Shown piece by piece: positions 37,805-44,190 of a stretch of 64,000 bases of DNA. Origin of the DNA: a virus; the IMG/VR virus record IMGVR_UViG_3300022514_000030, positions 108,671 to 172,670 of that record. One strand, written 5' to 3'. The notes below the pieces were generated by a model, which worked only from the letters and a program-made list of their open reading frames with translations, did not search any database and was not told the DNA's origin. Position 1 is the first letter of the stretch. Each line of letters opens with the position of its first letter. Made by a program: the position numbers and the translations under genes.

Positions 37805-39004
37805 GTGTTGCCGATACTCTATGTCCCGACCCACGTCCATACCGCATTCAGCGTCCTCGATGGCCTCGCCAAGACTGAAGATCTGGTTGCCAAGGCAAAA
37901 GAGTTCGGCATGCCAGCCATTGCGGTGACGGACCATCGCAACACCGCTGCGCATGTGAAGTTCTACAGGGTATGTCAGGAGGCGGAAATAAAACCCCTGC
38001 TCGGCGTTGAGCTGAATGAAGCTGACGACAGGCTGCTGCACTCCCGTAAAGCGCGTCAGGAAAGAGGCTACGATGACTACCACATCATCATGATTGCCAA
38101 GAACCAGGAAGGCTACAAAAACCTCATGGAGATAGTCTCGGACGCCTCTACTGCGGGCTACTTTGACAAGACCGAGCAGACAGACATGACGGTCCTCCGC
38201 GAGCGCGGCAGGGGAATTATAGCCACTTCGGCGTGCCTGGCCGGCCGCATCCCGCGGTACATCCTCCAAAACAGGCTGGACGATGCCGAGCGATGGATAT
38301 CCGACTTCAAGGAAGTCTTCGACCAGTTCTATCTGGAGATTCAGCCAAACTCCCTGCCGGAGCAGGCTGTAGTAAACGAAGCGCTCATTCAGCTTGCACG
38401 CAAGACGAACACGCCGCTCATTCTTGGCACTGACGTGCACTATGTGAACCGCGAGGACGCCTTTGCACAGGACATTCTATTGTGTATCCAGACAGGCAAG
38501 AAGCTCAAAGACCAGGATCGTCTCAAGTTCAACGGAGATCCGGACTACTACATGTGGTCGCCGGAGGAGATAGACAAGTGGATTGCCGCCTCTTCCCTGC
38601 CTCATGATGCTCTGTATGAAGCTGTAGAGAACACTCTACGCGTTGCCGAAGAATGCGACGTCACACTGGATCTTGGCACGCACAAGATGCCAACGTTCAA
38701 GACACCGGACGGCTCAACGCCTGAAGACTATCTTACACGCATCTGCTACACCGAACTTGACCGCAGGTTTGCCGATCACCCCGATTACGGCACATACAAG
38801 GCACGGCTTGAGATGGAGCTGTCTGTCATAATTCCCAAAGGCTTTGCGAGCTACTTCCTCATACTGCAGGATATCCTGGACTACTGCAGACGTCAGGGTA
38901 TACCGCGTGGCGGTGGGCGCGGCAGTGCGGCGGGATGCTTCGTAGCTTACCTGCTTGGGATAACAACAATAGATCCGATACAGAACGGTCTATTGTTCGA
39001 GCGT
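37805..39004 (+). CDS. dnaE: DNA polymerase III alpha subunit DnaE, exon 1 of 5
   Basis: Exon 1 (400 codons) contains the PHP domain: [17 protein letters not shown], then the start of the polymerase core (G-R-G-S-A-A-G-C). It ends ...LLFER, after which the intron brings an immediate TAG. Splicing exons 37805-39004, 39252-40018, 41523-41684, 42785-42975 and 43217-44190 gives 3,294 bases, an unbroken frame of 1,097 codons plus stop, close to the normal DnaE length. The start is GTG 37805 or TTG 37808; both sit close to AAAGGGGG. Replicative polymerase of the element. Confidence 0.92.
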
Positions 39005-39251
39005 TAGAGGATAGCGCTCGTTAAACTGGGTGAATTCGGGGAAACTCCCTTTAGGGACAACCCCGAGCCGAGCCTGGCCGGGCCCGGCGCAAGCCGGTGG
39101 TAGCCAGGAAGGTGTAGAGGCCAGCGGCTGAGTCCCAACGATAATGCCGCCACGAGCGCCCGGCACCGGAGTCCTCCGGTGATGATATGGTCCGACCTGC
39201 CTGGCAACAGGCAGAACCAGGAGATAAAAAGCTCCTGGGATAACATAAGTG
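39005..39251 (+). ncRNA. Group I intron 1 in dnaE (247 nt, no ORF)
   Basis: The upstream exon ends in T and the intron ends in G. Exon bases CGAGCGT pair with GCGCTCG (intron 39014-39020) as a 7-bp P1 with a U-G pair at the splice site. GAATTCGGGGAAACTCC and GATGATATGGTCC are core-like blocks (P4-P6 and P3/P7). A 3' hairpin around GATAAAAAG precedes the end TAACATAAGTG. Removing it joins LLFER to FLNPERV, the canonical DnaE sequence. Confidence 0.9.
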
Positions 39252-40018
39252 TTCCTCAACCCCGAGCGCGTGAGCTTGCCCGACATTGATGTGGATATCA
39301 GTCACGAGCGTCGCGATGAGGTTATAGCCTACGTCCGCCAGACATACGGCCACGTTGCCCAAATAGCCACCTATTCCCTACTCCATCCCAAGAGTGCCGT
39401 CCGTGACATATGTCGCGTACTGGATCTTTCCTATTCTTATGCTGACATGCTCTCCAAGCTGGTGCCCGAGAAGATGCCAGACCAGTCCGAGGTAACGCTT
39501 GAGAAGTTCCTGCTCCCCGTAAACGACTTTGACAAGGCTGCCGAGAAGTGGGGACCGGCCGAGGCAAAAGCAATCAAGGCACAGGCCGAGCAGTTCCTCA
39601 AGGAAGCGCAGAAGCACCCGGAGATTATGAACATCCTCCACAAGATAGAAGGCTGTGTCCGCTCTGTAGGAATACACGCTGGTGGCGTCCTCATAGCTCC
39701 CACGGAGCTTACGGACTACTGCAGCCTTATTGCTTCTCCGGGCAAGGTCGTCTGTTCGCTCGATATGGAGGATGTCGATGTCTACGGCCTGCTGAAAGTC
39801 GACCTTCTCGGCTTAAAGACGGTGTCTATCATTTATCGAACAGCAGAAAGAGTTGGCGTTGACATAGACAGTGTGCCGCTAGATGATCCTGCTGTCTACG
39901 AGCTCTACCAGAACGGTCAGACCCACGGTATATTCCAGCTGTCCGGTGATGGTATCACGAGGTATGCCAAGGAGGTGAAGCCGCGAGAGTTCTCGGACCT
40001 GGTTGACATATTGGCCCT
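39252..40018 (+). CDS. dnaE: DnaE exon 2 (catalytic palm)
   Basis: Starts FLNPERVSLPDIDVD; the Asp residues of PDIDVD (spliced residues about 411 and 413) are polymerase metal ligands. It continues through the palm and thumb to SDLVDILAL; the last Leu codon is split by intron 2 (CT|C). Confidence 0.92.
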
Positions 40019-40285
40019 TGCCTAGGTGGTAGGGGGCCGTTAAAGCGGGTAATATGCTGGGACGCCCTTAGAGTCCAACCGACGATACCGACCGGTGACG
40101 GATCGGCGACCCGTAAAACTGGTTGGAATTGGGCAATCAGCAGGCAAAGTACTGAGTCAGTCAGTACTGGCCTCAGAGACTGCGGAGTATTCCGGCTCAT
40201 GATTGGTGACAATCATGAGTATCCCCGCTAGGCCTCTAAGGAGGCCGAATGATACAGTCCGAACCCTAGGCGAAAGCTTAGGGAG

Positions 40286-41428
40286 TCAGGCAGAAATGAC
40301 CTGACCTTCCAGGGCCATAGCTAGGCGTTGTCTAAGCCATTCTTCAGTTATTGGTTCATCGTACCGTATAACTAACAGTTTTAATCCATGGGCACTAATT
40401 AGTTTCTGCTTAATATAGTCCCGATACTTTCTGACCTTGAACTTCTCTAGCTCGTCTTCACCGAAGCGTTCTGTTTGCGGTATATAGTGTTGCTCACCAT
40501 TGTACTCTATGCATAGTTTATAGGCTGGAAAGTAAGCATCAACATAGAGCTTACGTCCCGTTTTAGGGTTAACTAGCCATGGAAATGACTTCTCCAGGAT
40601 ATAGGTGCTATTGAGAATCTTGGCTATTTTCTCTATAATGATTCGCGCTGTTACTGGATTGCCTGGTATTCGATCTTCTAGTCCGGCAGCTCTGTAAGCA
40701 TTATTAAGAGAGCCGAATCTGCGCATGAATGTCTCAACTGAGTAGCGTGATGCCTCCTTAATGACCTTGTGAGAAACATACCCGTATTCGTCTTTGAGTC
40801 GTCTTAGCTCTTCAAGGAGGTGTTCTTCAGGAATGTTTATCTCACAGTTGATGGGTAGCCCAAGTTCTCTAAGCATGTTGTTAAAGCTTCCAAACAGGCG
40901 CTCTATAGGTTTGCGTGAATACTTGCCTTCTCGTAGATAGAGTTCTTTGGTGATGCGACCATGCTCCCTAAAGACTCTTAGGACGTCTTCAACTAGTTCT
41001 TCTCTTGTAATTGGCGTGGCCCTGTGAGACGCTTCTTTATGCGGCTCGAGACCAAGAAGGCGGTAGACGTTTAGAAGTGATCCAAAGTGATCCTTATATG
41101 CCGTAGGTCCAAACCGCCCATGGTTGGCGATTATCTGATTGGTTACCTTACCGAATAGTTCGTAAAGCCGCAGGAATTCTTGTAGCAACTCTTCGTCGCT
41201 TATCTTTCCTTTATGCGGTGTTCTCACAGGACTCCGCCAGTTACGAGTTGAGATCCGTTTACTATCCTGTTTGTTAAGTTTAAGTTCTTCTGCAAGGCGC
41301 TTTATACCTCCGTACTTCTTCACTTGATAATACGTAAGTACGGGATGCTTCTGAATAAGCTCTTTGCTGATGTGCCCATGGGACTTGTAGATCTCATACA
41401 GATACCTGAGGACTTCTTCGCGAGTCAT
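40286..41428 (-). CDS. Homing endonuclease: four DNA-binding repeats plus Vsr/PD-(D/E)xK-like nuclease
   Basis: 380 residues, on the strand opposite to dnaE. Residues 1-230 hold four repeats of about 50 residues ending in patterns like F-G-S-L-N-N-A-Y-R-A-A-G-L, the homing-endonuclease-associated repeat. Residues 270-380 contain LYVDAYFPAYKLCIEYNGEQH, a Vsr-like or EDxHD/PD-(D/E)xK nuclease core. It presumably cuts intronless dnaE. Its ribosome binding site GGAGG lies in one arm of a 13-bp hairpin just upstream. Confidence 0.85.
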   Translation of the reverse strand: MTREEVLRYLYEIYKSHGHISKELIQKHPVLTYYQVKKYGGIKRLAEELKLNKQDSKRISTRNWRSPVRTPHKGKISDEELLQEFLRLYELFGKVTNQIIANHGRFGPTAYKDHFGSLLNVYRLLGLEPHKEASHRATPITREELVEDVLRVFREHGRITKELYLREGKYSRKPIERLFGSFNNMLRELGLPINCEINIPEEHLLEELRRLKDEYGYVSHKVIKEASRYSVETFMRRFGSLNNAYRAAGLEDRIPGNPVTARIIIEKIAKILNSTYILEKSFPWLVNPKTGRKLYVDAYFPAYKLCIEYNGEQHYIPQTERFGEDELEKFKVRKYRDYIKQKLISAHGLKLLVIRYDEPITEEWLRQRLAMALEGQVISA

Positions 41429-41431
41429 ACC

Positions 41432-41472
41432 GTACTATACCTCCCATTGGTATTCTCATGGAGGTATAGTAC
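41432..41472 (-). promoter_or_regulatory. Hairpin sequestering the endonuclease ribosome binding site
   Basis: GTACTATACCTCC (41432-41444) and GGAGGTATAGTAC (41460-41472) are perfect 13-base inverted repeats with a 15-base loop. In a minus-strand transcript the GGAGG next to the ATG at 41428 would be paired, limiting translation unless the hairpin opens or transcription starts inside it. Confidence 0.7.
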
Positions 41473-41522
41473 CTGGAACAAAACGTTCACATTGCCTAGC
41501 TATACCTGGATGTAACATAAAG

Positions 41523-41684
41523 CTACCGTCCAGGCCCACTCGACGCCGTAGTAGAAACAGGGCGCACCATTGCAGAACAGTATATCTACAATCGTGAGCA
41601 TCCAGATGAGATAACCTACCCGCACCCGGATTTGGAGGATATACTGAGGCCGACATACGGCGTTATGATATACCAGGAGCAGGT
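41523..41684 (+). CDS. dnaE: DnaE exon 3
   Basis: 54 codons: ...YRPGPLDAVVE, then ...RPTYGVMIYQEQV. MIYQEQV is a conserved motif of the polymerase finger region. The final Val codon is split by intron 3 (GT|G). Confidence 0.9.
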
Positions 41685-42784
41685 GACTTCGTCGCCTGGC
41701 AGATACAGAAATGTATCTGCGTAGAACCGGGCAAAATCGGCGGAGCCAACATACCGTATCGTTTAGCAGGAGGAAAACGATATGTCCAAGAGCGCTTGTC
41801 ATGACCCCGTCCGAGAGCAAGCAGTTGCATTATACAGCCAGGGATTACTTATTCGTGAAGTTGCCGAACTGTTATCCCTTAAGCCCAGTACTGTCCAGTC
41901 GTGGATATCTAAGGCTGGTATAAGCAGACATCGTGGTCCCGCTTCTGGCGTGGTTAACGAAGATTACTTCGATTACATTGATACAGAAGACAAAGCTTAC
42001 TGGCTTGGTTGGCTTATGGCTGACAGCTGTATTAGCGTCTACAACGGACAGTACTCTCTTAAGATTCACATAGCCATTGAAGATAGGATACTCATTGATA
42101 CGTTTCTAAGGTTTATTAGATCAAGCAATAAGCCATGCATCAAGCAGTACCGAGGATGTACTTCATACTACGTTAGTTTGACATCGCACCACATGGTTGA
42201 GGCTCTAATAAGACATGGTGTAGTCCAAGGTAAATCGGCGCGTTGTTCTATTCCAGATATACCGCAAGACCTTGTTAGACATTTTGTACGCGGTTATTTT
42301 GATGGAGACGGTACGATTGAGACACGTGGCAAACGACGCAGGGCAGGGATAACAGGACATCCGCTTTTGCTTGAGCAAATTTTAGACATGATCATCCAGT
42401 CACACCCGTTAGAACGGTGTCCTAAAATATATCCTTCAACCGGAACATCTTACTTTCTCATTAGTAGGCGCCATGATTTAGAGATGTTTTATGACTATCT
42501 GTATGGAGATGCAACTATATGGCTTCCCAGGAAGCGCGATGCTTTTGTTGAAGCTCTTGGGCGTGGCAACGCCGAGGTAACCATCTGGCCTAAAAACAAG
42601 ATGGCACCGTAACGCATAGAGGGTGAACCTGTGAGCACGAAATGTGCTCACAGAATATAATCCCTCCACGAGTGTCCGGCACCCAAACCGTAAAGGTCGG
42701 TGGGTGAAAACGTATGCTGACCTGTGCCGAGTGGTATGGTAGGCACAGAACTAGAGGATAAAAAGCCTCTAGGGTAACAAAGTG
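41685..42784 (+). ncRNA. Group I intron 3 in dnaE (1,100 nt) with LAGLIDADG gene
   Basis: The exon ends CAGGT, which pairs with GCCTG at the start of the intron (P1 with U-G). GAACCGGGCAAAATC near the start, CCACGAGTGTCCGGCACC after the endonuclease gene, and a 3' hairpin around GATAAAAAG ending TAACAAAGTG resemble intron 1. Splicing gives GT|G ATG, restoring EQVMNIAKKLAGYTLG. Confidence 0.87.
41782..42612 (+). CDS. LAGLIDADG homing endonuclease
   Basis: 276 residues from ATG 41782, after AGGAGGAAAACGAT. Residues 10-45 form a helix-turn-helix (LIREVAELLSLKPSTVQSWI). LAGLIDADG motifs are YWLGWLMADSCI (about residue 73) and FVRGYFDGDGTI (about residue 172). A single protein with both motifs acts as a monomer. 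Encoded in the same direction as dnaE, inside intron 3. Confidence 0.92.
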   Translation: MSKSACHDPVREQAVALYSQGLLIREVAELLSLKPSTVQSWISKAGISRHRGPASGVVNEDYFDYIDTEDKAYWLGWLMADSCISVYNGQYSLKIHIAIEDRILIDTFLRFIRSSNKPCIKQYRGCTSYYVSLTSHHMVEALIRHGVVQGKSARCSIPDIPQDLVRHFVRGYFDGDGTIETRGKRRRAGITGHPLLLEQILDMIIQSHPLERCPKIYPSTGTSYFLISRRHDLEMFYDYLYGDATIWLPRKRDAFVEALGRGNAEVTIWPKNKMAP

Positions 42785-42975
42785 GATGAACATTGCTAAG
42801 AAGCTTGCGGGCTACACTCTAGGTCAAGCGGACGCCCTAAGAAAACTTATAGCCAAAAAGAAGCTTGATGAGCTTCCTGCAGCTCGTGCACAATTTGTCC
42901 AGGGCGGCGTAGCAAATGGTTATCCTGAAGAGCTGATGAACCAGCTCTTCGACCAAATAGAGAAGTTCGGTGGGT
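42785..42975 (+). CDS. dnaE: DnaE exon 4
   Basis: Begins with the last base of the Val codon, then MNIAKKLAGYTLGQADALRK, and ends ...LFDQIEKFGG plus the first base of a Tyr codon. Conserved finger-domain sequence. Confidence 0.9.
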
Positions 42976-43216
42976 TGACAGAACAGCCCCCGTGCGGAGC
43001 AATCCGCACGTGCAAACCGGGTGAATTCAGGGGAAGCCTGAGATGGTCACCCTGAGCCAAGCCCAGCCAGGGGCCCGATGGATAATCGGTGGCGGCTGGG
43101 AAGGTGCAACGACCAGGACGTGCGTCCCCGACAATAAGCGTTCCTCGAGCGCCCGGCATCCCTCTGGGATGATGATATGGTCTAGCCCAACGGGAAATGA
43201 ACCGTTGGTAGGAGCG
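42976..43216 (+). ncRNA. Group I intron 4 in dnaE (241 nt, no ORF)
   Basis: The exon ends GGGT and pairs with GCCC in the intron for a short P1. The intron ends in G at 43216. GGGTGAATTC, GGCTGGGAAGGTG, GAGCGCCCGGCA and GATGATATGGTC blocks are shared in order with intron 1, so the two are relatives. Splicing gives T|AT GCC TTC, restoring KFGGYAFNKSHSAAYA. Confidence 0.88.
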
Positions 43217-44190
43217 ATGCCTTCAACAAGTCCCACTCCGCAGCGTACGCGTACCTGTCATACCAAACGGCCTATCTCAAAGCACATTATCCGGTAGAGT
43301 TCATGGCCGAGCTGATGTCAAGCGATGTGAACAATCCCGATAAGCTGCTGGAGCATGTACAGGAGTGCCGCAAGATGGGCATCCCGCTGCTCCCGGTAGA
43401 CGTAAACCACAGTAAAGCGGAGTTCTCCATTGAGACTGTTGACATTGCAGGCCGCCCGGTCAAGGCAATCAGGTACGCCTTAACCGGTATCAAGACCATA
43501 GGCCGCAGTGTAGCTGACGAGATTGTAGCGCACCAGCCGTACGAGTCGTTTGAAGACTTCGTGCAGAAGGTGCGCGGGCGGACGGTACACAAGAAGGTCA
43601 TGCGCACGCTTATCCTTGCCGGTCTGTTTGACTGCTTTGAATCAAACAGGTACGCTCTTCTGCACAAGTACTACTTTGTGCTCCGCAGAGAAAAGCCTGA
43701 TAATGTCGACTGTCCTGATCCGGCTACATGGAGTGATTCAGCTAAATATAGCCTTGATCAAGAGTCTTACGGCTTTGCGCTGTCTGGCCATCCTGCAGAA
43801 TCGTATCCATGTCACTATCCACCTGCTGTACCGTACGATAGGCCGTTCTACATTTCCGGAGTTATCACTGACGTAATCGTGGACAAGGACAAGCATGGGC
43901 GGCAGATGGCCAAAGTGCGGCTTGATACGCCATTTGGTCTGTATGCCATAAGATTCTACTACCGCCAGTGGCAGCGCTACAGGTCGCTCGTCAATCAGAT
44001 ACGTCAGCTCGACCTGCCGCTTGTCACCATCAAGGTTAGGAAGACACGGTACATGTCATATGACATCATCGAAGCGGTCCATGTGCTTGTGCCAGAGGAA
44101 GCACAGCGGATGTGGCAGGAGTATCTTGACAGCTGCTTTAACGTTCACACAGTCCTGCGCTCGAGCTGCCTTGTGCGATTCTACGCGTGA
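43217..44190 (+). CDS. dnaE: DnaE exon 5
   Basis: Starts with the last two bases of the Tyr codon, then AFNKSHSAAYAYLSYQTAYL. Includes helix-hairpin-helix-like sequence (ALTGIKTIGRSVADEIV) and an OB-fold region (YISGVITDVIVDKDKHGRQM), the normal C-terminal order of DnaE. Ends ...VRFYA at TGA 44190. Confidence 0.92.

What the first reader, a model, noticed from the sequence alone, without database searches (positions are those of the whole stretch)
40286..41472. Endonuclease gene lying antisense inside intron 2, with its ribosome binding site in a hairpin
Seen: the 380-residue homing endonuclease reads opposite to dnaE, so it cannot be expressed from the polymerase transcript. Its GGAGG is in a perfect 13-bp stem next to the ATG. 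Known: in T4 introns, hairpins hide endonuclease start sites in read-through mRNA. An antisense homing gene with this lock is unusual, and its transcript could interfere with intron folding or dnaE expression.
Basis: partly seen in the sequence, partly recalled or inferred. Interest (0 to 1): 0.72.

Follow-up and report, generated by a model that had tools for sequence, protein, structure and literature searches.

The report
Backwards homing gene inside phage intron
[quoted passage not shown] I know such backwards homing genes only from introns in slime-mould ribosomal DNA, so how this one is switched on is an open, testable question.

Summary
A 380-codon homing endonuclease gene (HEG; 41428-40286, minus strand) lies antisense in dnaE intron 2 (40019-41522). 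Its Shine-Dalgarno GGAGG sits in a perfect 13-bp hairpin 11 nt before a well-supported ATG.

Comparison adds more. The intron belongs to a phage subfamily that keeps a HEG in the loop of one terminal stem, present in all eight HEG-bearing introns found. Six carry the HEG in sense; two, the window and L091 (same arrangement in contig L092), antisense. These two sit at different dnaE sites and apart on the intron tree, so antisense probably arose twice. The stem is an inverted repeat, so reversing its loop need not harm the ribozyme.

The start-site lock is not peculiar to the antisense state: sense HEG L090A buries its AUG, and antisense L091 leaves its Shine-Dalgarno free. No convincing minus-strand promoter or terminator was found for the window HEG. 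Interference with dnaE is untested.

Antisense intron HEGs are known from nuclear rDNA (I-DirII, I-DsqI); I found none reported in phages in the open papers searched. Verdict: real, a new variant of a known kind, moderately interesting.

The parts
40019..41522 (+). dnaE intron 2 (group I), 1504 nt; joins ...LVDILAL|YRPGPLDAVVE...
   Evidence: RF00028 hit 39991-40282, 41.7 bits, E 2.3e-8, below gathering 50; subfamily model R1, which includes this sequence; junction translation; P1 GGCCCU/GGGGCC with U.G and P10 CUACC/GGUAG read from the sequence
40028..40038 (+). internal guide sequence: GGUAG (P10) + GGGGCC (P1)
   Evidence: sequence
40285..40305 (+). P9.1-like hairpin GTCAGGCAGAAATGACCTGAC, the GCAGAAATG motif of the subfamily; its complement also holds the last codons and stop of the antisense HEG
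   Evidence: alignment A2
40309..40326 (+). left arm of the stem that encloses the HEG; its complement codes HEG residues LAMAL
   Evidence: duplex test over 8 introns, 0 of 14833 mismatched pairings as stable
41494..41509 (+). right arm of the enclosing stem, followed by UAACA...G at the 3' splice site
40286..41428 (-). 380-aa homing endonuclease: helical HNH_repeat array + C-terminal VSR-like nuclease domain
   Evidence: single copy in the 172,670-bp record
41432..41472 (-). 13-bp perfect hairpin holding the HEG Shine-Dalgarno
41440..41444 (-). GGAGG Shine-Dalgarno, 11 nt before ATG
   Evidence: sequence

Best explanation
Intron 2 is a mobile phage group I intron whose HEG cassette (start-site hairpin + gene) sits in the loop of a terminal P9-type stem, antisense to the ribozyme (shown from sequence and comparison). 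The usual state in the family is sense; the reversed state arose separately in this lineage and in L091 (inferred from two changes on small trees). It is tolerated because the HEG lies outside the ribozyme core and the enclosing stem, an inverted repeat, is the same whichever way the loop reads (structure shown, tolerance inferred). The enzyme is presumably made from its own minus-strand promoter in or just downstream of the intron. By analogy with T4 I-TevI, transcripts starting upstream of the hairpin give locked mRNA, and a start in or after its 5' arm would free GGAGG (inferred; no promoter found). The protein would cut intronless dnaE alleles at the ALYRPGP codons and spread the intron by repair (inferred from the family).
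For: Intact ORF with conserved residues D297, E308, Q313-H314, D337, K340 and a VSR / I-Bth0305I-like fold (probability 1.00, TM by target 0.60-0.65). Correct DnaE on splicing, with P1 and P10. Homologous HEGs in homologous dnaE introns: L074, L075, L078, L090A, L090B, L094 sense; L091 antisense. Window and L074 introns are sisters (100/99, 71% identity) although the HEG of L074 is sense. Enclosing stem in all eight (own sum -191.8 kcal/mol; mismatched mean -101.7, best -146.5). L091 has a terminator-like hairpin after its antisense HEG and a free Shine-Dalgarno. T4 precedent for start-site locks: PMC2988022. Antisense intron HEG expressed from its own promoter: I-DirII, PMC3073962.
Against: No minus-strand promoter better than chance and no terminator recognised downstream of the HEG. 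No similarity between homing site and HEG upstream region that would suggest autorepression (163 of 1000 shuffles as good). No near relatives, so selection on the HEG and conservation of the hairpin are untested. Single metagenome contig. HEG GC is 44% against 55% for the intron core and 54% for dnaE, which would fit recent arrival of the HEG better than an old in-place flip.
Confidence: 0.6

Rival explanations
1. The HEG did not flip in place: a separate HEG invaded the stem loop of the intron in the opposite orientation, replacing a sense one or entering an empty loop.
For: HEG GC 44% versus 55% for the intron core, similar to the LAGLIDADG HEG of intron 3 at 45%. HEGs are only about 30% identical, and the protein tree places the window weakly.
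Against: The nearest HEG by path and identity is that of L074, which also has the nearest intron. The last HEG codons run through the stem arm and the P9.1 complement, as expected if it was reversed between the arms.
Confidence: 0.3
2. The hairpin is not a translational lock but an element of another kind (DNA operator, minus-strand processing or stability element, or part of the intron fold on the plus strand).
For: The same inverted repeat can fold on the plus strand too. No minus-strand read-through source is visible in the window (57 of 59 candidate genes plus-strand). The other antisense HEG (L091) has an upstream hairpin that leaves the Shine-Dalgarno free.
Against: It covers GGAGG exactly, as in T4; the related sense HEG L090A buries its AUG in a strong hairpin (z -4.33).
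Confidence: 0.25
3. The antisense HEG is a relic that is no longer expressed.
For: No promoter or terminator found; once all sites are occupied, selection on a HEG can fade (PMC3984707).
Against: 380 intact codons, conserved nuclease residues, intact Shine-Dalgarno.
Confidence: 0.15
4. Assembly artefact: the HEG is sense in the real genome and was flipped by the assembler across the inverted-repeat arms.
For: Single metagenome contig; an inverted repeat flanks the HEG.
Against: Arms of 16-18 nt are shorter than usual assembly k-mers. A second antisense case is seen in contigs from two metagenomes (L091, L092). The HEG ORF runs intact across the left arm to a stop.
Confidence: 0.05

Closest known systems
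I-DirII (Didymium iridis S956-2) and I-DsqI (D. squamulosum L2066), antisense HEGs in nuclear rDNA group I introns (PMC9548176, PMC3679873, PMC3073962)
   Same: HEG antisense to the group I ribozyme, in a peripheral stem (P9.2 in D. squamulosum); must be expressed from its own transcript; sense and antisense versions exist in related introns
   Different: Eukaryotic rDNA, His-Cys enzyme (I-DsqI), spliceosomal introns and poly(A); no Shine-Dalgarno or RBS hairpin
T4 I-TevI, I-TevII, I-TevIII, segB and Aeh1 mobE: RBS-sequestering hairpins (PMC2988022)
   Same: Shine-Dalgarno in a stable stem beside the AUG
   Different: The I-Tev HEGs are sense, in introns of the transcript that is locked, with mapped middle or late promoters; here antisense and no promoter found
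T4 segD, antisense free-standing HEG (PMC2988022)
   Same: HEG opposite to surrounding phage genes, no promoter recognised
   Different: Not in an intron
I-Bth0305I (EDxHD / VSR-like phage homing endonuclease)
   Same: Catalytic-domain fold (3r3p, probability 1.00, TM by target 0.65)
   Different: No sequence match found; the DNA-binding part here is an array of HNH_repeat units
Sense HEGs of the same intron subfamily in dnaE: Thomasclavelia phage TR-TP1 (L075), Alicyclobacillus phage KKP_3916 (L074), IMG/VR L090 and L094, Clostridium MAG L078
   Same: Homologous intron, enclosing stem, HEG family, host gene
   Different: HEG in sense orientation; insertion near DILGL, or in L090B 4 nt from the window's site

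Membership tests
Group I intron | Covariance-model match to the core | tested here: inconclusive
   RF00028 41.7 bits, E 2.3e-8, below gathering 50; homologous introns in L074 (41.7) and L090 (28.1, 20.4) also score below it. The strong R1 score (141 bits) is by construction, since the window is in that alignment
Group I intron | P1 with U.G at the 5' splice site, 3' terminal G, P10, correct exon joining | tested here: met
Group I intron | Self-splicing activity | not testable with these tools
   needs in vitro splicing
Antisense intron HEG (I-DirII type) | Intact HEG opposite to the ribozyme, within the intron | tested here: met
Antisense intron HEG (I-DirII type) | Own promoter / expressed antisense mRNA | tested here: inconclusive
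   no promoter above chance; no RNA data
T4-type RBS lock | Shine-Dalgarno sequestered in a stable hairpin | tested here: met
T4-type RBS lock | Internal promoter giving mRNA without the 5' arm | tested here: inconclusive
   no promoter above chance, but phage promoters of other types are not covered by the scan
T4-type RBS lock | Lock acts on transcripts of the interrupted host gene | tested here: not met
   the dnaE transcript is on the other strand; it may work like a T4 lock on minus-strand RNA, but it is not filed as a member
EDxHD / VSR-like homing endonuclease (I-Bth0305I) | VSR-like catalytic fold | tested here: met
   Foldseek 1vsr and 3r3p, probability 1.00, TM by target 0.60 and 0.65, though E-values only 0.017 and 0.037
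EDxHD / VSR-like homing endonuclease (I-Bth0305I) | E-D-x-H-D active-site residues | tested here: inconclusive
   conserved D297, E308, Q313-H314, D337, K340 not mapped residue by residue onto 3r3p; no PDB sequence match

The most novel reading that the evidence does not exclude
The HEG loop of these phage introns is an invertible module: recombination across the inverted-repeat P9-type stem flips the HEG without touching the ribozyme, switching it between expression with dnaE (sense) and expression from its own antisense transcript, which could also silence dnaE pre-mRNA.
Probability: 0.12. Interest if true: 0.8.

Novelty: new variant of a known kind. Interest (0 to 1): 0.52.

Why it matters
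In the open papers I could search, antisense HEGs inside group I introns are described only for eukaryotic rDNA, where their expression without harm to the host transcript is called an unsolved question. Two separate antisense cases in one phage intron subfamily, beside six sense relatives with the same stem, make that question testable in bacteria, where promoter mapping, reporter fusions and phage crosses are simple. They also suggest why orientation can change at little cost: the HEG sits in the loop of an inverted-repeat stem.

Tried and rejected
Sigma-70 promoter scans on the minus strand gave no hit above chance. A homing-site-like operator upstream of the HEG, as for I-TevI, was not supported. 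dnaE relatives in viral contigs by peptide patterns: none confirmed. Other antisense HEGs in 131 loci with the intron motif: none inside an intron; L214 (LAGLIDADG) and L164 (HNH) first looked like cases but lie just downstream of short HEG-less introns. A Rfam scan of 38 other loci with the nuclease domain found no group I intron at gathering score; two earlier tries were over the size limit. PDB sequence searches gave no convincing match. The 3' splice site of the L091 intron could not be fixed to the base: the tested junction gave no open frame.

Full report
WHAT IS THERE. The window is part of a 172,670-bp virus record. dnaE is split by group I introns: Rfam hits at 38995-39214, 39991-40282 and 42966-43200, plus a further insertion with a sense LAGLIDADG gene at 41782-42612. 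Intron 2 runs from 40019 to 41522. The exon ends GGCCCU, which pairs with GGGGCC at 40033-40038 with the usual U.G; the next exon begins CUACC, which pairs with GGUAG at 40028-40032 (P10); the intron ends in G; the joined exons read ...LVDILALYRPGPLDAVVETG.... The Rfam match for intron 2 is below the gathering score (41.7 against 50, E 2.3e-8), as are homologous introns in other phages, so the call rests on splice-site pairing and comparison as well.

THE GENE. The minus-strand ORF 41428-40286 has three HNH_repeat matches. AlphaFold (mean pLDDT 77.6, pTM 0.37) gives an array of helical repeats followed by an alpha/beta nuclease domain. Foldseek finds VSR (1vsr) and I-Bth0305I (3r3p) with probability 1.00 but modest E-values. 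The start is supported by an in-frame TAG three codons upstream and by homologs that align from residues 1-5. The HEG has GC 44% against 54% for the dnaE exon and 55% for the intron core.

THE HAIRPIN. The 13-bp perfect inverted repeat is confirmed. Perfect repeats of this size are rare in the window (four; none in five shuffles), and the local fold is much more stable than shuffles (z -3.64). GGAGG is almost fully buried (unpaired 0.07). Four of the 58 other candidate genes with a Shine-Dalgarno in the window are predicted to be more buried, so burial alone is not exceptional; the perfect stem is.

RELATIVES. Homologous HEGs of about 30% identity lie in homologous introns of dnaE in Alicyclobacillus phage KKP_3916 (L074), Thomasclavelia phage TR-TP1 (L075), a Clostridium MAG (L078), and IMG/VR contigs L090 (two introns; L093 a near-duplicate), L091 (L092 a near-duplicate) and L094. 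The intron core of the window is 77% identical to that of L074 by blastn over 128 bases. The junctions tested give continuous DnaE for the window, L074, L075, L078, L090A, L090B and L094; the L091 junction could not be fixed to the base. L090B is inserted 4 nt from the window's site (ALG|RPGP versus AL|YRPGP); L074, L075, L078 and L094 at DILGL.

ORIENTATION. Six HEGs are sense (L074, L075, L078, L090A, L090B, L094). Two are antisense: the window, and L091, where dnaE is on the minus strand and the HEG on the plus strand of the locus. On the intron tree the window groups with L074 (100/99), apart from L091. On the weakly resolved HEG tree the fewest changes of orientation are two. Antisense therefore most likely arose twice from sense, though eight rows and weak branches limit this.

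WHY IT IS TOLERATED. In all eight introns the region after the GCAGAAATG hairpin pairs with the region before the 3' end and encloses the HEG: summed duplex energy -191.8 kcal/mol, mismatched pairings mean -101.7 and best -146.5, 0 of 14,833 as good. The L091 stem is the weakest by eye. In the window the arms are CCAGGGCCATAGCTAGGC (from 40309) and GCCTAGCTATACCTGG (from 41494). Because the arms are an inverted repeat, the loop can be read either way without changing the stem. In the window the antisense HEG reads through the complement of the left arm and into the P9.1 complement, adding ...LAMALEGQVISA, whereas the sense HEGs end before or within the right arm or at the UAA just after it. 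This fits reversal between the arms but does not prove it; the lower GC of the HEG would also fit a separate invasion.

THE LOCK. L090A, a sense HEG, has its AUG fully paired in a hairpin of z -4.33; L091, an antisense HEG, has a free Shine-Dalgarno (0.85) with an upstream 10-bp hairpin, and a terminator-like hairpin downstream. Lock and orientation are thus separate traits. One reading is that the window's lock came along with the cassette and may be partly a relic; another is that it still guards against stray minus-strand transcripts. A -10-like TACTAT lies in the 5' arm (41471-41466), where an I-TevI-like start would free GGAGG, but no promoter stands above chance, so this is only a hypothesis.

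LITERATURE. The T4 review (PMC2988022) documents RBS-sequestering hairpins for I-TevI, II, III, segB and mobE, and the antisense free-standing segD. Antisense HEGs inside group I introns are documented for Didymium rDNA (PMC9548176, PMC3679873, PMC3073962). Ten full-text searches, seven of them aimed at strand or orientation, and the papers read gave no phage example; subscription papers are mostly not covered. The cyanophage S-PM2 psbA region has an antisense RNA linked to a homing endonuclease gene (cited in PMC5931967 and PMC3428280), a different arrangement.

VERDICT. A real, well-preserved antisense intron HEG with a start-site hairpin; a new variant of a known kind; expression, homing and any effect on dnaE are inferred, not shown.

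Noticed in passing
window 37805-44190: dnaE of this phage is split by four insertions: group I introns at about 38995-39214 and 42966-43200, intron 2 (this finding), and one with a sense LAGLIDADG HEG at 41782-42612.
   Followed up: partly
L090 1930-5436: A related phage dnaE carries two close introns of one subfamily (88% identical cores) with two different sense HEGs, one 4 nt from the window's site; the first HEG has its AUG in a strong hairpin.
   Followed up: yes
L091 3131-6100 (minus strand): A second antisense HEG in a dnaE intron, with a terminator-like hairpin after it, followed by another intron of the same subfamily without a HEG.
   Followed up: yes
L214 367-1135 and L164 1186-2689: Antisense LAGLIDADG and HNH genes lie just downstream of, not inside, short HEG-less introns of the same subfamily; possibly intron/free-standing HEG pairs.
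   Followed up: partly
L157 2384-2563: HEG-less intron of the same subfamily in the ribonucleotide reductase gene of Brochothrix phage ADU4.
   Followed up: no
L098 6386-6949: ROOL RNA next to tRNA genes in a phage contig that also encodes a VSR-like nuclease domain.
   Followed up: no
window 41432-41509: CTATACCT occurs in the hairpin and again in the right enclosing arm, so an alternative pairing of the minus-strand leader that would free the Shine-Dalgarno can be drawn; the 13-bp hairpin is predicted to win.
   Followed up: partly
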